Part shown: one piece after another, positions 7,777 to 56,327 of the stretch
Layout: each line of letters begins with the position of its first letter
Position numbering within the stretch: the stretch's first letter is position 1
Origin: Porphyra umbilicalis
Lineage: Eukaryota; Rhodophyta; Bangiophyceae; Bangiales; Bangiaceae
Length of the DNA stretch: 64,000 bases
Direction: 5' to 3'
Assembly: GCA_002049455.2 (NCBI GenBank)
Contig: KV918854.1
Coordinates: forward strand, 124,001 to 188,000
Translations under genes and position numbers: made by a program
Notes under the pieces: generated by a model
The model's input: only the letters and a program-made list of their open reading frames with translations
Databases searched by the model: none
Told to the model about the DNA's origin: nothing

Positions 7777-9392
7777 GCAAGGACTTCTCGAGGGCCTTCA
7801 CTGGCCCCCCACGTCGGGGTGCCATGCCCGTCGACCAGATTCGCTGTTCCGCCCGTGGCTCCCGTGCCAGGCGTCACACGTCCAGTGTCGATGATCAGAG
7901 CGCGGCCCCGGGCGTGTCGCCCACTTCAGCTGACAGCCTAGTGCGAGCAGGACTAAGACCAGTAGATCTCGTCCTCCGCGCCATTTCGAACCGCTGGCAA
8001 GTCCATTGCGAAATCATAGGAAATCGCAGCATCTTTTGACCCTATCTTGATCCCTGAACGATGGCCCGACGGTCCAGATCACAGGCCCGTTCTGGGTCGG
8101 TCGAGGTCACATGATCAAATTTGTGACGATCAGAACGCAAGTGTCGACCCGACGCCGGCGTCGTCGATTCGGACCACGTCGCCGCCGCGATCCGCAGCCC
8201 CCCCAGCCCCCTCCCCACCGCCGACGTCGCCGTCGCCGCGGCTGCGGCCGAGGCGTCCTCCCGATCCCCCCCCCTGCCGCCCCACGCTCCCCCCCGCCCC
8301 CCCCCCTCCACTCCTGATCCAATCACTTCTGTTTCTCGTCTCGTCTTGCATTCGTTTTTCTTGCTTTCTTCTTCGTGAGTCATCTGCCTTGTTCTTTGGT
8401 CTGTTTCTCTGTGTCGTAGATAAACACACACGCTGCTCCTGTTCTTTTTTGTCTTGGTCTTTCTTCTGCGCTGCGGTACTGAGCTTGCGTTCGCTGCAGT
8501 TTAATGCACTTCTTTACTGTCGGCATCAGTTCTTCTAGCCCGTCCACTGTGCTTAAAATGCTGTTCGAGTCGTGGAGGGAGAAGCCGCCTCGAACTCAGA
8601 ATGCACAAACCCACCTCCGAGACCTTCATTCCCCCTTCAAAAAAAAAAAACGCAAGAGAGCCACCGGCGGTGATCAGCACCAGCAAGGGAGATCGACGAG
8701 GGCGGCTGAGGTCAAAACGACAAGAAAAAAGAACAGCATGTGTTTATCTCAACGACACGAAGGGACCGCCCACATAACAAGGCAGATGACCCACGAAGAA
8801 GAAAGCAACAAAAACGAATGCAAGACGAGACGAGAAACAGAAGTGATTGGATCAGGAGTGGGGGGGGGGGGGCGGGGAGGAGCGTGGGGCGGCATGGGGG
8901 GGGGATCGGGGGGACGCCTCGGCCGCAGCCGCGGCGACGGCGACGTCGGCGGTGGGGGGGGGGCTGGGGGGGCTGCGGATCGCGGCGGCGACGTGGTCCG
9001 AATCGACGACGCCGGCGTCGGGTCGACACTTGCGTTCTGATCGTCACAAATTTGATCATGTGACCTCGACCGACCCAGAACGGGCCTGTGATCTGGACCG
9101 TCGGGCCATCGTTCAGGGATCAAGATAGGGTCAAAAGATGCTGCGATTTCCTATGATTTCGCAATGGACTTGCCAGCGGTTCGAAATGGCGCGGAGGACG
9201 AGATCTACTGGTCTCAGTCCTGCTCGCACTAGGCTGTCAGCTGAAGTGGGCGACACGCCCGGGGCCGCGCTCTGATCATCGACACTGGACGTGTGACGCC
9301 TGGCACGGGCGCCACGGGCGGAACAGCGAATTTGGTCGATGGGCCTGGCACCCCGACGTGGGGGGCCAGTGACGGCCCTGGAGAGCTCTTTG
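7777..9392. repeat. 0.68-kb inverted repeat (foldback-like), 264-bp spacer
   Basis: The left arm, about 7777-8454, pairs with the right arm, about 8719-9392. The arms share long identical blocks, such as ACTGGCCCCCCACGTCGGGG and TTGATCCCTGAACGATGGCC (with the complement on the right). Differences are concentrated near the inner ends and in C/G runs. The spacer holds an A-tract at 8640-8650. No transposase is encoded. A foldback transposon, or two elements inserted head to head, are both possible. Confidence 0.85.
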
Positions 9393-39616: not shown

Positions 39617-39749
39617 CAGTGCGTTCTCGTTATAAGAGAATCGTTTACAAAAGAATATGGGTCGCGAGTCTTCCATTCCAGTCCGTGTGGGCCACTTTTT
39701 GTTCATATTGAGCCGAATCAGCTGTCTCTTATCACGAGAACGCACCGTA
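39615..39749. mobile_element. 131-bp MITE with TA target duplication, pogo/Tigger-like ends
   Basis: Element 39617-39747 is flanked by TA. The left end CAGTGCGTTCTCGTTATAAG and the complement of the right end CGGTGCGTTCTCGTGATAAG match at all but two of the first 22 positions. CAGTG-N-TTCTCGTTATAA resembles pogo/Tigger termini. It is too short to encode anything. Confidence 0.85.
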
Positions 39750-40016
39750 TTAGCGAAGCTTCTAGTAGGGATCCATTCGTGTTCTCAACGCTCAGGCAGC
39801 CACGTTGCATAGAATGGATGGCCCTAGTCGATTTGATGGTCACCCTGTAGGCCATTTGATTGGATGGTCCCATCTGCACGCCCAATCAAGAATATCCACG
39901 TTTCAGCATTAGACGGCTCACGATCGCTCTGGTCCAGATGGATTACACACGCAAGCGATTACAGATTCCGCCAAAAGCGTTTACAGATGCCTTCGGGGAA
40001 CCCCCACTGTACAGTA

Positions 40017-40420
40017 TATTGCTGATCCCCGAATTTTGTCCTGGGGGACAGAGACAGAGACTGACTGTGAATAACAGCATTCTGTTGGTCGAAAACGACA
40101 GTAAAAAGGCGTCAAAGCCAATAGAAAGCCCGCATTCGATGCCAGGACCTTGCATCCAGCAGAACTCACTGTTTGTTGCCCCTTGATCCGATTTTCTTGG
40201 CACGGAGCAAGCTGCCCATGCGAGATCTTGAGATTTTCAACTGTCTCCTTGCCAGAAGTGCAGAAAAAAAAGAGGAGCTGATGTCGATTTCCAGACTGGA
40301 TGGGCACATGTAAGCAATCAGGCGCACCAAGTCAGTCCCAGGGGCGTATCTGATTGGCGGAGAGAGTCGGTCCGCAAGTCAGTCTCTGTCCACCAGGACA
40401 AAATTCGGGGATCAGCAATA
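40017..40420. mobile_element. MITE with TA target duplication, family 1 copy b
   Basis: Element 40019-40418, 400 bp, is flanked by TA. Its ends start TTGCTGATCCCCGAATTTTG and continue into GACAGAGACTGACT on both sides, the left side having an extra CAGAGA. It is the same family as 18068-18497. No internal coding sequence. Confidence 0.9.
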
Positions 40421-42900
40421 CACTCCACACCAAGGCCCAGAAATGGTCAGCAGCGCGCCTGCACTGCCTCTCCGCTCTCTTCCGTCATTTCGCCTTCTTG
40501 TCATCTGGCCCCTCCGTCGGGCCTTTCACACCACCACTCCATCGTCGTCACCGCACCGCCATGCTCTCTCTTCGACGAGCGCGCCGCATCCGCTCCTTCT
40601 TTGGGCCCGCGCTCCGCATCCGCCCCTTTTTTTGCCCCCCCCCTCCCCCTTTCTTTGCGCCCGCGCGCCGCATCTGGTCGCTACGATGCGTGCCGGTAAA
40701 TTGATCAGATATTTTCGGCACGCAACAGTTGGAGTGTTGGAATTTGGAGAGAACGGCCGTAGAAGGTCATTTCGACAGCAAGACCGGCACTTTAACTCGG
40801 TGAGCGACACTTTAACCCAGTGACCGACACTTTAACCCATGGTACCGAGCTTAAAGCGGATTGCAGACCGCTTTGAAGGTGTATTTAAGACTTGACGGGC
40901 GGCTGCTGCTCAATTGACACGACTCGACGCAGCTACCGATCCGACGGCAGCGACATTCAGAAACGGGAAGCCCAACAGCCCGGCGGGAATTTGATCCTCG
41001 TTGTCCAGGTCACAGGCTTTTTGTCTGTGTCGGGTGCTGGGCATCGTCTTGCTTGGCGGATGGTTGCGGTGTGTTGGTCTGTCCCCTCGGCGCGCGCGGC
41101 GGGCAGCCTGGCTGTGCGTTCACGCCGACCCCCGCTCGACCCCCTTGACGCGTGCGCCCGGTCGAGGGGCGGTTTTCTGGGCGCCCGCCCCCGGTCTGTG
41201 GACCCCCTTGGCGCGTGCGCCCAACCCCCCCCCCCCCCCACTCCTCTCTACACCTCTTGTCCTCCACCCCCGTCGTCGCCGCACGGCATGGAGGCCCGGC
41301 GTCTGGCGGCGCATGTCGTTCGCTTCCCTGGCCGGCCTGCAGCGGCTGCTGCCGAAGCCGCGGACGCCTTCCTGGACTTTCTACACCGCGAGTACCCTGA
41401 CGGCGTGCCATCCGCTGGCATCGGAGCGCACGCGGGTGGGGATGATGGACCATCTGATGGCAATGGACGTTGTCATTACCATGATCTTTGACCCTGACGA
41501 GCTGGGTAGGGAGCTTGCCCCCTTTTACGACGGCGTCTTGGACGCGGCCGGTATACGTTCGGCTGTAAGTAGCTGGGTGCTGCACGAGCAGATTGAGAGT
41601 GGGCACCGTGTTGGGTGGGTGCCGCGCGCCGTTGGGCTGATGTAAAGAACTGTGTGTGTGCCCCCATCCTGTCTGGGCTCTGATCTGGTCTCTTATCGTG
41701 TGCTCCTGTACGTCCACCCACATGGAGGGCGTCCAGGTCGTCAGTTGCATTCGCAACAAAGGCTACTGAGCCCATCCGCCCGTCGAGCAGCAGCTGACGA
41801 CGAGATTGGCGGCCCAAAGCAGCTCCCTGGCGGTGTTGTCGTCGATGGCGCGGTGGACTGGTTGTTGAAAACAAAGCGCGGCAGGGGAAAACCGATCCAG
41901 AGAACACGAAGAAGGGTTGCCGTTCAGTGGCAGGTGCCGAGCCTCCTGACAAAGGCAAAACCCCGCACTCCATACGAGCCCCACTCGTCGCCGTGCCCCG
42001 TCCACCCGTCTGGCGCACAACGAGCACACACCAGCAAGATCAAGCTACATGGGCTCGAAGAAAAAATCGGCCCTGGTGACCACACACAGGCCGATTTCAG
42101 ATTCCAATGTGGGTCCCCATTGCCAGCAATGACATTTGCGTCCCACCCCCAGTGAAGCGCCACTGCGCCGGGGAAAGGGCAGGGTCAGCCCGAGGTCTCT
42201 GTGAGAAGCTTGTAGCCCGCCTCTCGTATGTAGTGCTCGTGTGGTGTGTCCGCATCGGCCGCACGGGGTTGCTCCCGTAATCATTTGGACGGCACAGGGC
42301 GAAGCGAATCACGGCTGACAAGGGGGTCTCACCCGTGCGCGCCCGCACGCCACGCACGTGCGGATGGGCGCGTTGGCGCGGCAGCCGACGCGATGGAGCG
42401 GCGACGCCTGTGCACACCCCCTGGCGCGGGCCCAGACGCGTGCAGCCAAGCGGGACAGACCACGCGACCGTTGGCAGCGGCGTGTGTCGCCACACCGGGC
42501 GAGGCGTTGCCGGATTGTAGACATCTCGTTTGACAGTTGTTGCAAAAGAGGGATTACAAACACCCAAGACGTGGAAAATCTCCCTTCACAGACGGTATAC
42601 CGTGGTGTAAACATACGCGGGGATCCGTACAGTACCGGCAAACTGTCACGTGACGACCTCGGCCAATCGCATCCACGCTACGTCGGCACACCGTGCCACG
42701 CGCACAGACCACCCCACTCGCAGGAACAATGGACGGTCGACGCACGCCGCTCGGCTGCGGCGGTTTGTGGCTGCCACACCCCCCCCCCACCCTACAGCAT
42801 GATGTGGCAGCGGCGAACGGGACGGGTGTTGCGCTGGCCCCGCTCCGCTCGGGGTGGCGGCGCGGTCGACGCCTCGTCCGACGGTGGGACAGGCGTCGCG
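40421..42900. other. Mostly non-coding; possible degenerate frame at 41289-41645
   Basis: An ATG at 41289 opens a protein-like plus-strand frame (MEARRLAAHVVRFPG) that continues in a second frame to 41645 (DPDELGRELAPFYDGVLDAA). The switch implies one indel. I recognise no family. The remainder, including the AAA gene's downstream region, has only short frames. Confidence 0.35.
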
Positions 42901-45050
42901 TCAGTCGCTTGTGTCGCGGCTACCGGCGCGGTGCCCCACAGATGCGGCAGCAGCCACACCGTCCGGTGCGTGCGAGGCCGACAGAGCGGCACGTGCGCCA
43001 CCGAGGGACGTGCGGCCGCCGCTGCCAGACAGCTGGTCGATGGCCGCCAACACCGTCACCACCCACGTGTCGATCCCGTGCGGCACAGGTGCTGCTGCCT
43101 CGTGTACGCTCGCGAGGGCGTCGAGGAGCTGCTGAAAAACGCGCTCCATCTCGTCCACGGGTGCGTGCGTGAGGTGCACGCCGTCCAACGCAACGTGCAA
43201 CTCGGTGACGCGGGCACGCGCGACGCCGGTCTTACGCTTGCGCACGACCGCTTTGAGCGCGTCGACGACCGGGCACCAGTACTGCCGCCGCTGCTGCTCC
43301 GACGCCCCGTCCATGCGCACGACCGTCGACCACGTCGGCGCCCACGCGTTTGTCACGTCCTCGGTCGCGTTGGCAACGCCGAGCACCAACACGGGAGTGT
43401 CGACGGGGATGCGGGCCAGCACGCTGCGCAGCAGCGCGGTGGGCGACCCGTCGGCGGCGGCTGCAGACTCGGCCATCCACATCTCGGCGTCGGGCATGTA
43501 CAGGACCGACGGCGCGACGCGGACGGCCGCCGCCACCGTGGACAGCAGCAGCGGCAGCTGCCCGTCGGTGCCACTCGCAGTGAGGGAGAGGAAGCCGACG
43601 TCAAACACGGGCAGGGACTGCAGGTGGCACAGCACCGCAGCCCCAACCAGCGACTGCCCCATGCCCGCACGCCCCGCAATGCAGAGGCGGTGCGGGAGGA
43701 CCGGCCACGCGGCGAGCATGGCGGCGGCAGACGCACTCGACGTCGGCCCGCCCACGGCCTGGGTGGCCCACTCGGCGCCGGGGGTGGTCAGCTTGTCCAG
43801 CGGAAAGCGCGTGTTGAGGACCCCCACCACCCCCGACACGGTCGGCTCGAGGAGCGCGCTCAGGCGCAACGGCAGCGGCCGAGGCAGCGCCGGGGATACC
43901 CCCGCCCGGGCGGTCTGCGCTCGGGAGGCTAGCGCCACGTCCCAGTCCGCGTGCGTCACGTCTGGAAGCGGCGGCGGCGGCGCGCCCCCCCCCCCCCCCC
44001 CCCCCCCCCCCGCACCACCCCCGACTGTCGCCGGGTCTGTGGCGGCGGTCGCCACCGCCTCGAGCCACTGCGGGTCGGTCCGGCGCCACGCGCAGCACAC
44101 GGCTTCGGTGGCGAGGCCCCGGATTTCCGCTCCCGACCAGCCGTCTGTGCGTCGGACGACGTACGAGACCGCCGTCTCGTCTGCCGACGTGCCTGCGTGC
44201 AACGCCATCAGCCGCCGGCGGTCGGACGCGTCGGGCAGCTGAAAGTCGAGCTCCAAGTCAAACCGGCCCGGACGCCGAAACGCCGAGTCCAACAGGTCCG
44301 CCCGGTTGGTCGCGGCGAGGACCAACACGCGACCGCGCGAGCGAAAGCCGTCGAGCAAGGCGAGAAAGGTGTTGACGACCCGCGAGTGGTCGCGGTTGTC
44401 GTCCCGCGTCGCCGCGAGGGCGTCGACTTCGTCGAAAAACAAGATGGACGGGGCCGCCGCGGTCGCAGTGTCAAACAGGCGGCGCAGGCGGCGCTCGCCC
44501 TCGCCGACGTACTTGGAGAGGATTTCGCCGCCGCGGATGAGGTACAGAGGCACGGGGACGCCACCATTGGCCGCCCGCGCGTGCGAGGCGAGCACCCGCA
44601 CGCTCAGTGTCTTGCCCGTCCCGGGCGGACCGGTCAGCAGCACACCCCGGGGAAAGGGCAGGGGCCGCCCGACACCTCCCCCGCGCGGCGTGGTGGTGAG
44701 CAGCGCCAGCACCTCGCGCAGCCGCGACAAGTGCGCGTCGTGGCCCGCCACCGTTTCCCACGGGAGCGAGGCGGGGGGCTCGGGCTCGGGCACAATGTCG
44801 CCGGTCTCGCCCCGCCGGCGGCGCTTGGTCGCCCCGCCCGACACTGACCGGTCGGTGCGGGCGCGCTTGGCCCCGACGGGGCGCACCGGCGAGCCGCCTG
44901 CGTCGACGGGCGGGGGGGGGGCACGCGGTTGGCGGCGCTCGCGGCACTCGCCGGCGGCAGGGTGTGGAGGCGCCCGTCCAAGCGCGACGCCACGTCTCGC
45001 ACGGCGGCAAGCGCCGCGCGGTCCCGTGCGGAACGACCACCCCGAGGCAT
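42901..45050 (-). CDS. ATAD2/Yta7-like AAA ATPase, copy 1
   Basis: ATAD2/Yta7/Abo1 proteins are chromatin-bound hexameric AAA ATPases that act on histones H3-H4. This copy has a full first AAA module: Walker A LLTGPPGTGKT, Walker B ILFFDEVDALA, sensor AATNRADLLD and arginine-finger region FRRPGRFDLELDF. The second module is degenerate in the same way as the family's AAA2: GRAGMGQS replaces Walker A, followed by HLQSLPVFDVGFLSL and APSVLYMPDAEMW. No bromodomain is visible. The main frame opens at 44886 with GTG. An ATG at 45050 (MPRGGRSARDRAALAAVRDV) in another frame, joined at a G/C-run near 44915, is the likelier true start. A 27-nt C-run at about 43985-44011 encodes a Gly tract. Confidence 0.85.
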
Positions 45051-45230
45051 GCCGCGCGGCGAGGGCGACGGCGGGGACATGGTGCTGCAGACGGGGGGAA
45101 AACGACAGGGCGGCGGCACCGCGCGCACCCCGCGCGCCGCCGAGCGAGCCGCGCGGTCTCGCACGAGGGCCCCTCGGTGTGACGGCGACGCCCGTCGGCG
45201 GCGGTCGCAGTAGTCACATCGACCGGACCG

Positions 45231-46746: not shown

Positions 46747-46917
46747 CTGAGTACTGTCTATTCTGGCACAAGGGCTCCGATAAGGACGGCTCTACTCTTT
46801 TCCCTCCGAGTTGAGTACATTACGAGCTTCCAGCCTCAGCGCATATCCCGGATGGATACGAGTATCCGGTGCGGATATATCCTCCAAGGATTTATCCTCA
46901 CCAACCCCTGAACCCCA

Positions 46918-47740
46918 CAGGCGTCCTGGGGGGTGGGCTTGGGTGCCCAGCGACGCGCCGGGGTGCCCCCGAGCCGCACCCCGGTAGGTGGTTGATTTTG
47001 CAAAATATGGTTTATGTAGCCCACCAGGCTACCATAAAACCAACGGTATTGCTAGAGTCAACTCTCGTAGGTTTTCCATTGGATTGTGGTACATCACCCA
47101 TCTGGGGGGGGTGTCCTGGGGGTGCCCTGGGGGTACCCCGCAGGCGTCGTGGGGTGGGCTTGGGTGCCCAGCGACGCGCCGGGGTCCCCCCGAGCCGCAC
47201 CCCGGTAGGTGGTTGATTTTGCAAAATATTTTTATGTAGCCCCCAGGCTACCATAAAACCAACGGTATTGCTAGAGTCAACTCTTGTAGGTTTTCCATTG
47301 GATTGTGGTACTCACCCATCTGGGGGGGGTGTCCTGGGGGTGCCCTGGGGTACCCCGCAGGCGTCGTGGGGGGGGCTGGGTGCCCAGCGACGCGCCGGGG
47401 TCCCCCGACCCGCACCCCGGTAGGTGGTTGATTTTGCAAAATATTTTTATGTAGCCCACCAGGCTACCATACAACCAACGGTATTGCTAGAGTCAACTCT
47501 CGTAGGTTTTCCATTGGATTGTGGTACATCACCCCATCTGGGGGGGGTGTCATGGGGGTGCCCTGGGCGTGCCCGACAGGCGTCGTCGGGGGGGGCTTGG
47601 GTGCCCAGCGACGCGAAGGGGTCCCGCCGGGCCGCACCGCGGTAGCCGCGACGGGGTGGTTGTTTTTGCAAAATATTTTTTTGTAGCCCACCAGGCTACC
47701 ATAAAACCAACGGTACATCACCCCATCCGGGGTGGGGTGC
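46918..47740. repeat. Tandem array, about four units of 215-231 bp
   Basis: GTGGTTGATTTTGCAAAATA recurs from about 46989, 47210 and 47425 and, as a variant, about 47656, giving periods of about 221, 215 and 231 bp. Each unit continues TGTAGCCC, AACCAACGGTA, TTTTCCATTGGATTGTGGTA and a G-rich half ending CCAGCGACGCG. The last unit is truncated inside the AAA copy 2 downstream region. Confidence 0.93.
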
Positions 47741-47801: not shown

Positions 47802-50060
47802 CTAGACACATCGCGTGCGCTTTGCCGCCCGTCCACGAGAGCCGTCAGCGGCGCCGTCACCGCCGCCACCATCGTACGTGTCGTCATTGGCGACACCGTC
47901 TGCTGTGTTCGCGCCGACACTCGGCATTTCGCCGTCGAGCGCGACGGTGGCCCCCAAAAAGCTCCCCCACAGGTCCACCCCCGTCCGGACCTCGATGGAC
48001 AGGAGGGCGCGGAGGCCCTCAAACACCTGCTCCATCGCGTCGACGCTCCAATCCGCCGACTGTGTCTGCAACGCCTCCAGCCGTGCGCGTACGGCCGTCA
48101 TGGCGACTGGTAGGCGTACACCTTGCTCGAGCTGCACGGCAAACGTGTCCTGCCACGCCCCGACGATGTGGGCCCAGTAGTCGGTGCGCTGCGCATCTGT
48201 GGCGCATTCGACAGAAAATGTGGAGGGGAAACTGGCCAGCAACGCAGGGCGGGCGCGCCCATCCGTTGTGGCCAAAACCAGGAGCGGCGTTCCGACGGGT
48301 ACGTCCCGGAGCGCTGCCTCAAAAAAGCGCAGGCCCGTCGAGTCCCCCGCCGACGGGTCGTCCAGCCCCGCGTGTCAGCGACACAAAGCCCGCGTCATAG
48401 ATCGGCATTGGTGTCAGCGCATGCAGAACCGCAGCTGCGACGGTGCCTTGTTGCATCCCCTCGTCCCCGTCAATGAGCAGTTGCTCGGGCAAAATGGGGA
48501 GGCCCGCGGCCAAGCCTCTGAACCCAGTGTCCGCGCCGCACCCAACCGCCGCTGCGGCGGCGCACCGCCCAGGCACCGACCCGAGCCGTTGGACGGGAAA
48601 GTGGCGAGTGAGAAACCCCCGCACGTCGGCCAGCGTCGGTGCCAGCAGCGGCGCCACGCGTTCGGGGAGCGGCCGCCGCAGGGGCGGCGGCGTCCCGATC
48701 CGCGTGAACTGTTCGCGCCGGTAGAGGGTACCCTGCCAGTCGACACGCACGTCGGCAGGATCGTCGGCAACCTCCTTAATCGAGTCGAGCCACCCCGGAA
48801 ACCGCCGCGCGAAGACGGTCGTGGCAGCGTCGTCACAGAGGCCCGCAAGCTCGGCCCCCGACCAGTCGTCGGTGTGGGCGGCGATCCAGGCCGTGTCCGC
48901 CGCGTCCACGGGCACGCCGACCGCGGCGGCCGACACGCGCATGATGGCCGCGCGGCCGGCCGCGTCGGGGAGCCCAAAGCGCAGCTCCGTACCAAACCGG
49001 CCGGGCCGACGAAGCGCGGGATCGATCAGGTCGACACGGGACGTCGCCGCAACAACCAACACCCGGTCCCGCCGCCCCAGCCCGTCCAAGAACGCCAACA
49101 GCGTGGCCATCACGGGCATCGAATCTTGGCGCCCGCCGGTGCGCGTGGCCACGAGCGCCTCAAACGCGTCGAAAAAAATGATGGACGGCTGCGCGGCGGT
49201 GGCGGCGTCCATCACACGCCGGACGCACTGTTTGCCGTGGCCGACGCACTTGGAGAGGAGCTCGCCGCCATTGAGGACCCACAGGGGCACCACGGTGCCC
49301 CCATTGAGCGCCTTGGCACGGCCCGCCAGCATGCGGACGGCCAGCGTCTTGCCCGTCCCGGGGGGGCCCGTCAACAAAACCCCACTCTTGGTCGCGGCCC
49401 CCGCCGCCCGTCGCGCGTCGGGCATCAGGAGGACGGCGAGGGCGACTTTGACGGCGTCCACGTTGGCCGCTTGGCCGGCAAGAGCGTCCCATCCCGGCGT
49501 GTCGTCGGGCAGTTGAAGCGGCTCGGGCGGTGGCGTCGACGACCGCGGTGAGTCGGCCGTGCGGGTGCGGTGGCGCTGCAGTCGCTGCTGCGGTGGCTGC
49601 TCCTCCTCCTGGTGCTGTGGACGCGGAGGGGGCGGGCCAGCCAACAACGAACAAAAGGAACCATAATACATCGCCGAGAGGTTCTGGGCGCCGCCCGTGG
49701 CAGGTGATCGGGGGGGGGCGGGGTGGTGGGCGGGGCCTCGGGCGGGGCCTCGGGCGGGGCCTCGGGCGGGGCCTCGGGGGGGCCTCGGGGGGGCCTCGGG
49801 CGGGGCCTTGGTGCGCCTGCCACCCCGAGCGCCGGCACCTCGGCCGGCAGCGGGGGGGGTGCACGCGGACGCGCCCCGGCAGACGACAGCGGGGGGCGCC
49901 AAAGGCCGGCGGGGGCGGCCCGCCGGCTCCGCCTGCCCCGAGCGGGCGCGGCCGCGCCACCCACGCCGCGCCGACCAGCGTCCGGGGGGGGGGGCACCCC
50001 ATCGCCCGCGCGGTCGCCACCGGCACCGTCATCTCGCGTGGCACGCGGCTTGCCGTCCAT
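47802..50060 (-). CDS. ATAD2/Yta7-like AAA ATPase, copy 2, Walker B altered
   Basis: Paralogue of copy 1 in the same orientation, 2.75 kb away. Walker A is intact (LLTGPPGTGKT) but Walker B reads IIFFDAFEALV, with Ala where the catalytic Glu should be. Sensor and arginine-finger regions remain (AATSRVDLID, LRRPGRFGTEL). AAA2 is degenerate: DGDEGMQQGT, then LTPMPIYDAGFVSLT. The frame breaks near 48360 and continues in the next frame (FFEAALRDVPVGTPLLVLAT to 47802), so at least one indel is present. The N-terminus is unsettled: in-frame ATG at 49671, or ATG at 50060 (MDGKPRATRDD) followed by a shift. It may bind ATP without hydrolysing it, or be decaying. Confidence 0.78.
49723..49805. repeat. 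12-bp tandem repeat inside AAA copy 2 N-terminal region
   Basis: About six copies of GGCGGGGCCTCG, some with an altered base. Being a multiple of three, it gives Pro/Glu/Ala or Arg/Gly/Pro repeats depending on frame. This is one place where the gene's N-terminal frame becomes ambiguous. Confidence 0.8.
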
Positions 50061-51147: not shown

Positions 51148-52831
51148 CTATCGGTCAAACGCCTGCGGGGAGCTCCGTCCCGTGCCGGCGCGCGCCTTTT
51201 GCACAAACTTCCACTCAAAGTCGGCCCCATAGTCGACCAGCAGCTCCTCCCCAAACGCAACCGCCCGCGTCGTCCCGAGGGTGAGGGTGTCGTCCCGGGA
51301 CAGGTCCTCCACCGAACGGATGTCCGTGTACCACTTCAACACCGCGTTGGGCCCTTCGGCCGCGGGCGATGGGGACCGCGTGGGACCCGGCGCGGGCGCG
51401 ACCGGTGCCAGAGCACCCGCAGCACTCGCATCACGCGCATCATGCGCTGGCGCGGCCGCCCCGCCCCCCCCCCCCCCCCCCCCCCCCCTCCCCCCCCCAC
51501 ACGCGCCGGCCGCCGCGTCGGCGGCGACACGCGCCGCGCCGATGACCGGTCCCCAGTGGTTGACAAACCCGAGCGCCGACCCGCCGAGGGGCACAACCCA
51601 AAACGGCTTGGCCCAGTGAGACATCTTGTGCCCGTTCAAGCGGCAGAGCTGGGGCGTCACACGCGCGTTTCCGCGCATCGGCCCGTAGAAGCTGTTCTTG
51701 ACTTGCTCGTACTGCGCCATCTGACAGTTGTGCCACACGACCGGACCCCACAAGGACCCGACCGTGTGTTGGGCGCCAAAGCCATCCGGCCGGCTGACAA
51801 AGCAGCCAAGGCCCGCATCCGGCACGGTCGAGACGCCAAGGCGGACGCCACAGGCAGACGCGTCGGCGGCGCGGAGGGACGCGAGCGGAAAATCCTCAAA
51901 AAGAAACCGAAGGGCACGCCGCCACTTTCGCGGATGCGTGGCGTACATCGCCCCAATCTCAACGGGTGTCACCACGTCCGCGGCAGCAAGCGGGACGTAC
52001 GCGGCCACGACGTGGTCCACAATGTGCCTCGGCAGCACCGTGTGTGGCACCATCTCCGTCGCGGGCGGCTGCAAAATGCTGCGCCGCGCAGGCCGCATCG
52101 CCGGCGGGCGATCGTCAGAGAACACGTTGCGGTCGAGCGCACCGACGGTGGTCGTGACAGCCGATGCCAGCTCCGCATCTCGCTCGCAAATGGCTCGACC
52201 GTCGTGCATCGAGGACAAAAAGCGGACAAAAGACGAAAAGACGCGTCGCTTGCCAAACCGCACCGACACGGGGTCCTTGTCACAGCTCCAACTGTGGCGC
52301 CGCGTCTGGATGCACGCGTCCGCCGTTGAAAAGGAGCCCGCAAACAGGTCCAACACGACGTCGCTCGGTTTGGTGAAGCGTCGAATGAGCTCGCGCAAGA
52401 GGCTGACCGGCTTCTTCTCGGGGCGCAGGATGCCGTCGCCCGCATAGACGACCTCGCGACCCGTCGGCTGCGTCACATGGTTGTACACGTTGCTGTTGCC
52501 GGGCATACTCGACACGTCACTGTCAAACACGCGGTAGTTGACCATGCGGTGGCCGGCCAACCCCGCGCCGCGCCGCGTCGCGTGTACGGCCACAAACATG
52601 TGGTTGGCGAGGGTGGTGGTGCTTCGCGGCGCGCCCGTCGGCGTCGAACAAATAAAGGCCATGGGGCCCGCGTCCACCGCCCACAGCGACTCGTTCGTCG
52701 TCGGGGCCTTGTACGATTCGAGCGTCTTGGACAGGTCCGAAAACTGGGAGAAGGAACACATGATGATGGCGTGGCCCCCCTGCCGAACGCTGGACGTCGC
52801 AAAGTCACACAGCACCCCCGGTCCGCGTCGT
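51148..52831 (-). pseudogene. C-terminal part: DNA N-methyltransferase motif I region plus SET domain
   Basis: About 560 residues. It begins with FATSSVRQGGHAIIMCSFSQ and continues to YAGDGILRPEKKPVSLLREL, then SDVVLDLFAGSFSTADAC at about 52365-52315. This is the AdoMet-binding motif I of beta-class DNA N4/N6 methyltransferases, normally DLFAGSGST. The downstream half is a SET domain: VPDAGLGCFVSR near 51830, LGFVNHWGP, then after about 60 residues of Gly/Ala filler GPNAVLKWY, and finally FGEELLVDYGADFEW. The SET core asparagine-histidine and the GEEL-DYG motif are present, so lysine methylation is plausible. The frame is open throughout. The upstream edge is an insertion at 52832-53502. Confidence 0.75.
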
Positions 52832-53502
52832 TAACAGGATTGGTGGATCTGATATTCGTCAGTACTCCGATGCAATCCATGGAAAACATAATGATGCATA
52901 CGGCTCATGACAATAGCGAAACTCAATACGGAAAGATGAGAATTTTGGAAGATCACGACATACAGAGCATAGCACGATCTGGATAATCCGATCGCGACAT
53001 TCGATAAGATTGCAACTCTCCTGGCATCGCGATCGGGACGGGGAACAAAGAAAGATCGGCCGGAGAGGCGACTGCCCTGGTTCTGTCGCCATCCGGTGCC
53101 CTCGGCAGGACTGTCAGAAACGCCTGTGCTGGAGGCTGGAACCAGTTCTCGCTGGCCCCATTTCAGAGCCGCGCATCTGCAGTCGTACTACGTATTGCAA
53201 TCTTGTCAATTCTGGACCATGGGAGCAAGAGCAACCTGCAGTCCGCCCAACTGCTGATTGGCCGAGAGCTCGTATCCGGCCCAATGCATGACTGCCGTAC
53301 ATCAGTTCAGCACAGTTCTTCTCGTCGGGATCGGCCAAAGTTCGGGAGACTGCACTAACTGTGCTAGCACGAATAGGACAGGTGGCTTGTTTGACGATTC
53401 GATTGCACGCCTGCATATGAATCTCAAGGCGCCACTGCCGCTATCGCTTTTACAGATATTCTTACGGATAAAGCGGAGTGTCCAAGTCCGATCGTCTAAA
53501 GA
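52832..53502. mobile_element. Dispersed repeat, copy B, inserted in the methyltransferase gene
   Basis: 671 bp flanked by a 6-bp duplication CGTCGT (52826-52831 and 53503-53508). It is AT-richer than the host gene and homologous to copy A at 46053-46746. It lies between the catalytic motif IV part and the motif I part of the same gene. Confidence 0.88.
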
Positions 53503-53508
53503 CGTCGT

Positions 53509-54296
53509 GGTCAGAGTTGTCATTGCCAGCGACCACGCCGCGTATTCCACGGAATGTCCGTCAGCAGCAGCTGGACGCGCAGCTGGAGGCGGGATACGGG
53601 GAACTTCCAACAGTCGAGCTCGTACGTGCGACACTCCTCTGCCAGAGCGCGGTCGACCACCTGGAAGGCGTCACGCTGCGCGTCGGTCAAGCCGGCCACC
53701 AGCCCGACAGAGGTGTCTGTCGGTAGGGCCCCTTCCGGCGCGACGGGGGCACGCACAGCGTCGGCGGGGTCCGCCTCGACCGGCAAACGCAGCTGCTTCA
53801 GGTAGCTCGACAAGACGGGCGCCAGCCCATCCACCAGCGTGCGCCGGGGTCGAAGGAAGGACGCGCCGCTCAAACTCCTAATGTCGGCGCGCATGGACAG
53901 CGGGTTGTAGGTGTTTGACCAAACGTCCTTGCCGTTGGAAACGGCAACGACGTGCTCGACAAAGCGAACGGCCGCTGTCCGCAACGCCCGATCCGCCAGC
54001 GGCAAAGCGTCCAGCCGCCGCAACGCAGCGGCGTCGACCACGGCAGGGTCCACCGAGGGCCGTTGCCCATGCCACAGGCGATGGCGACTCGCCAGGGGGG
54101 CGAACCCCAACCGGGCGTCGGTGATCGGCTCAAAACACACATTCGTGGCGGACCACAACAGGTAGGGCGACAGCATTGTTTCACTGTCGGGGAAGCCACA
54201 CAAGATGGCAAGCACGTCCCACGATCGCACGCAGGCCATGATCTGCGCCTTGACGCGAAAGCCCCGCAGCTCGCGGTCGACGGCAGGGGTTGTCAT
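53509..54296 (-). pseudogene. Middle part: methyltransferase motif IV region
   Basis: About 262 residues from 54296, which reads ATG but may be mid-gene. Mostly helical, not low-complexity: AQIMACVRSWDVLAILCGF, then FVEHVVAVSNGKDVW. It ends LQLRVQLLLTDIPWNTRRG. TDIPW occupies the place of the catalytic DPPY/DPPW motif IV, with Ile replacing the first Pro. In beta-class enzymes motif IV precedes motif I, which is the order here once the 52.8-53.5 kb insertion is ignored. Two TGA codons lie between this part and the junction (about 53509-53527), so a small indel or real decay separates it from the C-terminal part. Confidence 0.6.
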
Positions 54297-55024
54297 GGAT
54301 AGATCCCTGAGGAGTATATCCATGCATTATATCCGTATCCACTTCGGATACGCGCCGGGCACGCATATTCTAAATGCATTATGAGAAAGAGAGGAGAGGA
54401 TATATCTATCCTGTCCGACAAAAACTGCAAGATTATATCAGATCCGTATTCCAGATATGAGAGGCAGGATACAGGGATATACAAGATTATAAAACTTCTC
54501 GGGCCGACAGAATTCCGGTACAACGCAGTCCACCTCTCTTTTCCCAATCCGACCATCGGGAGATTCATGTGCAAGCATGTTGCAGCGACAAGCGGCAATC
54601 CCGCCAGACCCGGAAGAAACCGTTCAAGCACGCGACTCGGCCCGCTTGCGATATCTGCAAAGTGTGACACGAGTTTCAGAACAGTCTATCTGACGACCGT
54701 TTACAAGAACGGCGGGGAACTGCCTGGACCGCGCCCGTTGGGGCGCACACATCAAATGCGAATATCATATCATAATTGACGCCCATTTAGCACTCAACAA
54801 GTGTCTGAATGGCGTCTTTCTCTGGCCCTAATTGTACGTCCTGACGGACTTGTAGGAATATAATCGGATACGATAATCGTACTCGGATACGGATATAATC
54901 TACGTAATAATCCGGTTTCAGAGGCAGATATCCGCATCCGGATCTTAGTTAAGCGATTTATCCGTAATCAGATACACCGCATCGGCGTGTATCCGTATCC
55001 TATTTCGCCTTGAAATGCGTATCC
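54296..55024. mobile_element. 729-bp AT-rich insertion with inverted ends
   Basis: Distinctly AT-rich, full of GGATA/TATCC words (GTATCCACTTCGGATACG, CGGATACGGATATAATC). Flanking sequences 54275-54295 and 55025-55042 are near-complements: GTCGAC-CAGGGGTTGTCA followed by GGATA on each side, allowing a 2-base gap. No transposase. It separates two gene parts that read in the same direction, so I take it as an insertion. Confidence 0.65.
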
Positions 55025-56327
55025 TGACAACCCCTGGTCGACGGTGCCGACCGGGTCGGGCGTCCGTCGCGGACGCCGTGTCGCACCGGCGACGATCGCC
55101 TTGGCCGCCCTGGTCTTTAGGGTGCCCCCCTGTCGAGCGACGCGGGAAGCACGACCGGGGGTGTTGCGCGCCGCCGGCGCCCCGTCCGCCGCACCCGCGC
55201 GCTTGGACGGGGCCTTGCCCGCACGCTTGGGCGTCGGCAGTGAGGGCCTCGTGTCGTTGACGTCTTCGAGAAACGGGTGCGCCGCCGTCACGTCGCGCGC
55301 GAGTTGGGTAAACCACCAGAGCCGCTCCCACGGGGTCGCGTAGGGACCACACGGTGCCACACGGCGCGCCGTGGTGGTCTTGTCGATCACACAATACGCG
55401 GCAGTCTCGCACAGCGCCTGGGAGCGATCCACCGCCGCAGCAGCGGAGAGCTTTGACGGGGCACCCGCAGCTGGAGCGGTCATCGCCGCGGCGCCGGCCG
55501 ATGCAGCACGTCCCTCGTCTGCAACGTCTCGGGGCGCACTCGATGCCGCGCCGGCGGCCGCCTTGTCCGTACCCGTGGCAACGCTGTCGACACCGCGCGC
55601 GGCCGCGGCACCGCGACTGACGCGGCGCACCTTTGTTGGCGGCGCGCCGTCGCCACCGTCGGGCGCACTGTCCACGGCGACCGACGCCACCCCGTCTCGG
55701 TCGACGTCCATGGGCGCGTCAGAGCTGCCCTCGGCGGCGTCTGCGTCCTCCTCCTCGTCGGACGGGGATGGGGATGGCCCCGCACCCGAGCGCCGCCCTC
55801 GTTTGGTGCGCTTGGGTGGTCCTTTCGCGAGCTTTGGGAGAGAGGGGCCCCCAAAGTTGCGCCACTGATGGGACACCAGCACAGGGCAGCGGAGCATGCT
55901 CCATGCAACCCGGGGCAGGCGGTCCGCCGGGCGGTCCGTAAACCCGACCCGGGAGCGCCCCCCTGCACTGGCGCCACCGCCACTACTGGCACGTGTGCCA
56001 GCCGTGGCCGGTGCCCCATCCGTTTCGGCGGGCCCGTCTGCGTCGACGAGCACGTCGGCCAGATCATCGACGCGGCGGCCCAGGAACAGGAACAGCTCCC
56101 AGCACCGCGTGTCGACAGGCGCAGCGCGCGCTTGCCGCGCCGCAGTCAGGTGGTCAGAAGTCCACGGCTTGATCGCCTGCAGGAGGCGGTACCACGTGTA
56201 CGTGCGGTTCTCCGATATCCACTTGACGAGCCCCTCCTCCGTCGAGGCCCCGTCAGCTCTGCCCGCGCTGCGCAGAACCTGTGCAAGATGGTGGACTTCA
56301 TCATCAACTAATGATGTTAAGTACGGT
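55025..56327 (-). pseudogene. N-terminal part of the methyltransferase-SET gene, or separate fragment
   Basis: Open frame of about 434 codons without an ATG before a TAA at 56328-56330. It begins with a helical segment (WISENRTYTWYRLLQAIKPW, CWELFLFLGRRVDDLADV). A Ser/Asp/Glu- and Lys/Arg-rich nuclear-protein-like linker follows, then a second ordered piece (ALCETAAYCVIDKTTTARRV, WERLWWFTQLARDVTAAHPF) and a basic Lys/Pro tail. I recognise no domain. Its strand, spacing and the insertion between it and the motif IV part suggest one original gene of about 1,250 residues, but it could be an unrelated neighbour. The missing start means a lost exon or truncation. Confidence 0.5.

What the first reader, a model, noticed from the sequence alone, without database searches (positions are those of the whole stretch)
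51148..56327. DNA N-methyltransferase fused to a SET domain
Beta-order DNA methyltransferase parts (TDIPW as motif IV, later DLFAGSFST as motif I) are followed in one open frame by a SET domain (VPDAGLGCF, FVNHWGP, GPNAVLKWY, FGEELLVDYG). The motif I and SET linkage is direct, in one uninterrupted frame. A single polypeptide writing both DNA and histone (or other protein) methyl marks would be unusual; I know of no well-described family of this kind. Inclusion of the motif IV part and the N-terminal part needs two insertions to be ignored.
Basis: partly seen in the sequence, partly recalled or inferred. Interest (0 to 1): 0.88.

Follow-up and report, generated by a model that had tools for sequence, protein, structure and literature searches.

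The report
Transposon-borne DNA methyltransferase–SET fusion gene
In a red seaweed genome, a repeated mobile-element-like gene cluster carries a protein that joins a bacterial-type DNA methyltransferase to a divergent SET (protein-methyltransferase-like) domain, so one molecule might mark both DNA and chromatin protein; the copy in this window is broken, but uninterrupted copies exist elsewhere in the same genome.

Summary
The minus-strand frame 51148-52830 encodes the C-terminal half of a beta-class DNA amino-methyltransferase (PF01555, E 5.5e-12) running without a stop into a divergent SET domain. SET stays below Pfam's cut-off, but profile comparison supports it (score 53.3; best of 200 column shuffles 25.2). 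The genome is Porphyra umbilicalis. The gene is a repeated family: all 21 PF01555 matches found in the genome belong to it. Two subfamilies, 33% identical over a 1,400-column alignment, share the order N-domain, linker, MTase, SET. Uninterrupted MTase-SET frames exist at C60 (1,051 aa) and C82 (1,495 aa). The window copy is a relic: two insertions absent elsewhere and a lost 5' end. An AAA+ ATPase gene lies within 6 kb downstream at 17 of 21 loci. Best reading: an accessory protein of a giant algal transposon-like element, akin in kind to published algal ParB-MTase transposon proteins (PMC12477816, passages seen), with a SET domain added. Catalysis, expression, transposase, element ends and ParB identity are unproven, and two AlphaFold2 runs failed.

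The parts
51151..52830 (-). Open frame: MTase C-terminal half (motifs X and I) followed directly by the SET-like domain
   Evidence: frame; PF01555 on residues 137-188; alignment
52267..52422 (-). PF01555 N6_N4_Mtase match (motif X RPEKKP, motif I DLFAGSFST)
   Evidence: residues 137-188, E 5.5e-12; coordinates converted from residues
51151..51858 (-). SET-like domain (GLGCF, FVNHWG, Gly-rich insert, FGEELLVDYG); limits approximate
53486..54283 (-). Middle part of the same gene with motif IV (TDIPW)
   Evidence: 94-99% nt identity to other copies; frame 53520-54326
55036..56280 (-). Remaining 5' part of the gene; roughly the first 220-245 codons of the relatives are missing here
52835..53485 (.). 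Insertion 1 inside the gene, absent from the other copies compared; not classified
54284..55035 (.). Insertion 2, hAT-like MITE: inverted termini CAGGGGTTGTC/GACAACCCCTG, 8-bp duplication CCGTCGAC; a 96% related sequence in L035 (C5, about 485-486 kb)
   Evidence: the label hAT-like is from recalled knowledge of termini and duplication length
48322..50028 (-). AAA1: AAA+ ATPase gene downstream, conserved neighbour of MTase-SET
   Evidence: PF00004 E 1.8e-29; 17 of 21 loci
46912..47715 (.). 221-bp tandem array (3.6 copies) with three AGAGTCAACTCT motifs
   Evidence: related arrays at other copies
42904..45213 (-). AAA2: second AAA+ ATPase gene of the cluster
   Evidence: (PF00004 E 2.6e-41)
39748..42903 (.). 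Multicopy left part of the element; several copies start sharply at about 39748, a possible but unproven terminus

Best explanation
A multicopy, mobile-element-like gene cluster of Porphyra umbilicalis encodes a large accessory protein: an N-terminal domain with a ParB-like GxHR motif, a long linker, a beta-class amino-MTase of phage/bacterial type, and a C-terminal divergent SET domain. Proposed mechanism: the N-domain brings the protein to the element's own DNA (in subfamily A perhaps to the tandem arrays in front of its genes), the MTase methylates adenine (or N4-cytosine) there, and the SET domain methylates a nearby histone or other protein, setting a chromatin state that helps the element persist. 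Shown: the in-frame fusion, its conservation in two subfamilies, its multicopy state, its conserved neighbours. Inferred: ParB identity, DNA and protein targets, transposon class, function. The window copy is a decayed member.
For: PF01555 in the window copy and in relatives; all 21 PF01555 matches of the genome fall in this family; A and B collinear at 33%; uninterrupted frames with MTase and SET motifs at C60 and C82; SET supported by hhalign with shuffles, sub-threshold Pfam hits and PDB profile hits; motif order IV-X-I and similarity to phage MTases (phrog_67 E 1.6e-18; 473 of 50,697 phage records at E<=0.01, none covering 80% of the query); AAA1 within 6 kb downstream on the same strand at 17 of 21 loci and a GxHR-motif gene within 25 kb upstream at 15 of 21, one such gene being counted for two loci of C5; repeat arrays whose listed matches all lie on contigs with other genes of the cluster; MTase and SET in one protein in sequences from other contigs, P0001-P0003; published ParB-MTase genes in algal giant transposons.
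Against: SET never reaches Pfam's cut-off; two AlphaFold2 models failed (mean pLDDT 30.6 and 30.5), so no structural support. The ParB reading is weak: no Pfam hit, PHROG ParB E 0.18 for subfamily A only, no PDB hit, hhalign probability 0.5% against the other GxHR gene, no useful phage match. No CACTA transposase consistently near the copies and no proven element ends. Subfamily A, the window's, has altered motifs IV and I. The B locus examined has no 190-220 bp array and no array motif. dN/dS is only moderately below 1 (0.33-0.72 in 28 pairs of 8 sequences), and most copies examined carry stops, frameshifts or insertions.
Confidence: 0.68

Rival explanations
1. The fusion is real but is no longer an active double writer: the MTase (in subfamily A at least) or the SET domain serves as a binding or scaffolding module, and the protein only recognises DNA or chromatin.
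For: Subfamily A copies in which my patterns found the motifs have DIPW and LFAGSFS(T/M); SET is divergent and has NHY/NHW; weak purifying signal.
Against: Subfamily B (C82) keeps DPPY and DLFMGTGTT, and GLGVF, NH and EELFLDYG of SET.
Confidence: 0.3
2. The clusters are duplicated host gene blocks (segmental duplications), not a transposon, and the protein is a host chromatin factor.
For: No transposase and no complete ends identified; two copies on C25 and several on C5.
Against: Copies on many contigs, nested insertions, decay of most copies examined, arrays found (as far as listed) only on contigs with other cluster genes, AAA1 at 85% amino-acid identity between clusters whose MTase-SET proteins are 33% identical, and published algal transposon proteins of the same kind.
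Confidence: 0.2
3. The SET similarity is spurious and the C-terminal ~230 residues are another domain.
For: No Pfam hit above cut-off; AlphaFold2 failed.
Against: 200 shuffles gave at most 25.2 against 53.3 and the reversed profile 15.0; 14 of 15 PDB profile matches are SETD8/KMT5A; three SET motifs in the right order in A and B.
Confidence: 0.07
4. Assembly or contamination artefact joining two unrelated genes.
For: Draft assembly only; no reads could be examined.
Against: The same join recurs at many loci in two diverged subfamilies and in proteins from other contigs; the NCBI P. umbilicalis model P0008 has PF01555 and a sub-threshold SET hit.
Confidence: 0.02

Closest known systems
ParB-like + DNA amino-MTase accessory proteins of algal giant transposons (Ectocarpus Sola1-1_Ec32, 1,104 aa; PMC12477816, passages seen)
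   Same: Large single protein with an amino-MTase of the N4C/N6A type, carried by a multicopy element with several genes in an alga
   Different: Here a SET-like domain follows the MTase; the ParB-like part is only a weak motif match; no transposase found; no SET mentioned in the passages seen; the red-algal source paper is not held
Bdelloid rotifer N4CMT, amino-MTase + chromodomain (PMC8885841, 12 of 42 passages seen)
   Same: Bacterial-type amino-MTase joined to a chromatin-related domain in a eukaryote
   Different: N4CMT has a chromodomain (reader) and shown 4mC activity in E. coli; here the partner is a putative protein-methyl writer in a repeated element, activity untested
Phage beta-class DNA methyltransferases (PHROG phrog_67, phrog_498)
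   Same: Best profile similarity of the MTase part, spanning motif IV to motif I
   Different: In the two phage records opened the MTase is a short gene of 741 or 789 bases, without SET or long N-terminal extension
SETD8/KMT5A-type SET domains
   Same: GxG, NH and EEL.DYG motifs; best PDB profile matches, though weak
   Different: NH is followed by Y/W, subfamily A has a long Gly-rich insert, and the domain is fused to a DNA MTase

Membership tests
Beta-class DNA N6/N4 amino-methyltransferase (PF01555) | PF01555 score above curated cut-off | tested here: met
   46.5 bits vs 26.7 for the window frame; 51.1 and 48.0 bits for C82 and C88
Beta-class DNA N6/N4 amino-methyltransferase (PF01555) | Motif IV N-terminal of motif I in one frame | tested here: met
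   B (C82): DPPY at 960, DLFMGTGTT at 1146; A (C88): TDIPW at 900, DLFAGSFST at 1082. In the window itself insertion 1 separates motif IV from the rest
Beta-class DNA N6/N4 amino-methyltransferase (PF01555) | Intact catalytic motif (D/S/N)PP(Y/F/W) and FxGxG (motif definitions recalled) | tested here: inconclusive
   Met in subfamily B (C82); subfamily A, the window's, has DIPW and FAGSF
Beta-class DNA N6/N4 amino-methyltransferase (PF01555) | DNA methylation activity | not testable with these tools
   no biochemical or native-read data
SET domain | Pfam SET gathering score | tested here: not met
   13.8 bits vs 22.4 for the C82 piece; 8 of 14 members or pieces hit SET, best E 0.053. Hence called SET-like or divergent SET
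SET domain | Profile-level homology from GxG to DYG | tested here: met
   hhalign 94.7% probability, score 53.3 vs maximum 25.2 in 200 shuffles
SET domain | Motifs GxG, NH and (E)ELxxDYG | tested here: met
   alignment; NH followed by Y/W
SET domain | SET fold | tested here: inconclusive
   AlphaFold2 mean pLDDT 30.5; no fold search run on such a model
SET domain | Lysine methylation activity | not testable with these tools
   no assay possible
Algal transposon ParB-MTase accessory protein | N-terminal ParB-like domain | tested here: inconclusive
   GHHR/GHAR motif in A and B; phrog_620 E 0.18; no Pfam or PDB hit
Algal transposon ParB-MTase accessory protein | Gene lies in a large multicopy gene cluster | tested here: met
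   at C88 the parts found span about 62.5-104 kb
Algal transposon ParB-MTase accessory protein | Transposase and termini of a known superfamily | tested here: inconclusive
   No consistent Transposase_21 nearby (150 of 176 candidates scored); other transposase families were not searched

The most novel reading that the evidence does not exclude
A mobile element encodes one polypeptide that is targeted to the element's own DNA and writes two epigenetic marks there, a DNA amino-methyl mark and a lysine-methyl mark on chromatin protein: a self-marking 'double writer' carried by a transposon.
Probability: 0.25. Interest if true: 0.88.

Novelty: new variant of a known kind. Interest (0 to 1): 0.64.

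Why it matters
Coupling of DNA and histone methylation in eukaryotes is normally understood as separate enzymes linked by reader domains (recalled; the rotifer N4CMT/SETDB1 case in PMC8885841 is of that sort). A natural fusion of a DNA amino-MTase with a SET-like domain, spread by an element, would be a directly testable one-protein link between the two layers, and would extend the published ParB-MTase proteins of algal transposons.

Tried and rejected
Assembly artefact: held unlikely, since the join recurs in two diverged subfamilies and in proteins from other contigs. Introns instead of insertions: not favoured, because the other copies compared lack both stretches and insertion 2 has inverted termini and an 8-bp duplication; not tested with RNA. 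AlphaFold2 twice: mean pLDDT about 30, so no fold search was run. ParB test of the N-domain by Pfam, PHROGs, PDB, hhalign and phage tblastn: inconclusive. Viral contigs: 16 stretches matched a pattern, none confirmed as a relative. CACTA transposase: 136 matches listed in the genome, none consistently beside the clusters by my reading. The left end at 41718 was first taken as a terminus; later data suggest that the multicopy part runs to about 39748. Whether the TnpB/Fanzor-like and LRR frames belong to the element was not settled. The array search scored 38 of 55 candidates, cut its list, and did not list the array it was taken from, so absence elsewhere is not shown. Literature: ten searches of the held open library. 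I saw listings with the starts of abstracts, and passages of two papers only; none of what I saw describes a DNA MTase-SET fusion. The red-algal paper cited for similar transposon proteins is not held, so an earlier description cannot be excluded.
Full report
What is there. The minus-strand frame 51148-52830 (560 aa) has a significant N6_N4_Mtase hit on residues 137-188, which covers motif X (RPEKKP) and motif I (DLFAGSFST). The same frame runs on without a stop into GLGCF, FVNHWG and FGEELLVDYG. Pfam does not call SET in the window frame at E<=1.

Which genome. The window lies in an 83.8-Mb, 665-contig assembly. An NCBI protein of Porphyra umbilicalis of this family (P0008) comes from a contig of 448,974 bases, the exact length of C25 in this assembly.

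A repeated family. Searching the genome with the frame gave 41 matches: close copies at about 91-99% over long stretches, more distant ones at 34-39%, and fragments between (up to 69%). PF01555 has 21 matches in the genome (23 of 23 candidates scored), and all 21 coincide with places found with this frame. Subfamily A (window, C60, C88 and others) and subfamily B (C82, C5 and others) align at 33% identity (466 of 1,400 columns) in the same order. C82 carries an uninterrupted 1,495-aa frame with DPPY at residue 960, DLFMGTGTT at 1146, GLGVFV at 1317, NHYG at 1408 and EELFLDYG at 1465. C265 has the same MTase-SET stretch at 100% and may be the same locus assembled twice. C60 carries an uninterrupted 1,051-aa frame with all five motifs, but not the N-domain. 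C88 (1,419 aa) and C5 (1,463 aa) shift frame inside the SET region. In other contigs of the protein collection, P0001 (1,186 aa, 99% identical) has motifs IV and I and the whole SET region, P0002 motif I and SET, and P0003 motifs IV and I and most of SET. The NCBI model P0008 carries motifs IV and I and both ends of the SET region, with an altered middle.

Is it SET? Of 14 family members or pieces, 8 hit Pfam SET, none near the cut-off. A family profile against the PDB gave 15 matches, 14 of them SETD8/KMT5A, E 0.035-0.22; the 15th is an unrelated kinase at E 0.7. hhalign against six SET proteins of the same genome gave probability 93.0% and, with trimmed columns, 94.7% and score 53.3; 200 column shuffles reached at most 25.2, and the reversed profile 15.0. 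I conclude that it is a divergent SET domain, with the reservation that two AlphaFold2 runs failed.

MTase type. The order is IV, X, I, as in beta-class enzymes (recalled rule). The best solved relatives include RsrI, DpnA, MboIIA and CcrM, named there as modification or adenine-specific methylases; the best PHROG is phrog_67 at 1.6e-18; 473 of 50,697 phage records match at E<=0.01, none covering 80% of the query. Subfamily B's DPPY suggests N6-adenine (recalled rule). Subfamily A has DIPW and a changed motif I, so its activity is uncertain.

N-domain. Both subfamilies have a conserved region with GHHRL or GHARF, resembling the ParB GxHR motif (recalled). Statistical support is weak. I keep 'ParB-like' as a hypothesis, helped by the published ParB-MTase proteins.

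Surroundings. Downstream on the same strand an AAA+ ATPase gene (AAA1) lies within 6 kb at 17 of 21 loci; at the other four it is 9.9, 14.5 and 23.9 kb away or not found (from coordinates typed by hand). A second AAA+ gene (AAA2) follows in the window. Upstream on the opposite strand a gene with a GxHR motif (weak DndB and ParB hits) lies within 25 kb at 15 of 21 loci, one gene on C5 serving two loci; of the other six, one has it 27 kb away and five have none. At the C272 copy a C48/Ulp1-type protease frame (E 1.5e-4), an LRR frame and a TnpB/Fanzor-like frame (Cas12f1-like TNB E 9.8e-6, 26.1 bits against 26.3) lie further on; none of these three was looked for at other copies. In subfamily A, tandem arrays of about 193-223 bp lie in front of several of these genes and exceed 8 kb in front of MTase-SET at C88 and C25. 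A 442-base array query matched, among the listed places, only contigs that also hold genes of the cluster, but that search scored 38 of 55 candidates, cut its list, and did not list its own source. A palindromic AGAGTYRACTCT recurs in the arrays; the window has three, all in its array. The B locus examined (C5, L062) has neither the motif nor a 190-220 bp array.

State of the window copy. Two insertions (52835-53485 and 54284-55035) are missing from the other copies compared. The second has inverted termini and an 8-bp duplication. The 5' part beyond about 56280 is lost. The window copy cannot make the full protein as one frame.

Selection. Pairwise dN/dS in 28 pairs of eight sequences is 0.33-0.72, below 1 but weak, as expected for an element family in which most copies decay. 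Decayed copies were included, with stop codons skipped.

Prior work. [quoted passage not shown] PMC8885841 (12 of 42 passages seen) describes rotifer N4CMT with a chromodomain. Neither set of passages describes a MTase-SET fusion. Ten searches of the held library showed none in their listings, but the two sources cited for the algal proteins were not seen (one search failed for one; the other was not asked for).

Verdict. A real and unusual fusion, a new variant of a known kind (algal transposon DNA-MTase accessory proteins), with a testable but unproven double-writer function.

Noticed in passing
L002-L008 and 77 further places listed: 85 SET matches in the genome, many in long frames (up to 1,420 aa). 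Two tested (L002, L005) have a CXC-like stretch before SET (one over, one under the Pfam cut-off), an E(z)-like architecture; such numbers suggest a second repeated or mobile SET family.
   Followed up: partly
L040:1-2152, L043, L044, L059:1-1186 and 7913-8677, window:46912-47715: 193-223 bp tandem arrays in front of several genes of the A element share the palindrome AGAGTYRACTCT, which contains a GANTC site; possibly a common control or binding site.
   Followed up: partly
L060:1-2061(-): Frame with a TnpB/Fanzor-like zinc ribbon and RDTNAARN motif (Cas12f1-like TNB E 9.8e-6) near the C272 copy.
   Followed up: partly
window:54284-55035: hAT-like MITE with 8-bp duplication inside the gene; a 96% related sequence lies in L035 (C5, about 485-486 kb).
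   Followed up: partly
L039:9-1867 against window:48454-50371: AAA1 and its upstream DNA are 86-91% identical between A and B elements although their MTase-SET proteins are 33% identical, suggesting module exchange.
   Followed up: no
window:56481-57192: A ~710-bp sequence with matches on 28 other contigs lies next to the broken 5' end of the gene.
   Followed up: no
window:11129-12460(-): Retrotransposon fragment (reverse transcriptase, RNase H and integrase zinc-binding hits).
   Followed up: no
window:26313-33783: Ordinary-looking host genes: Rad3/XPD-type helicase pieces and an RSE1/DDB1/CPSF1-type gene.
   Followed up: no
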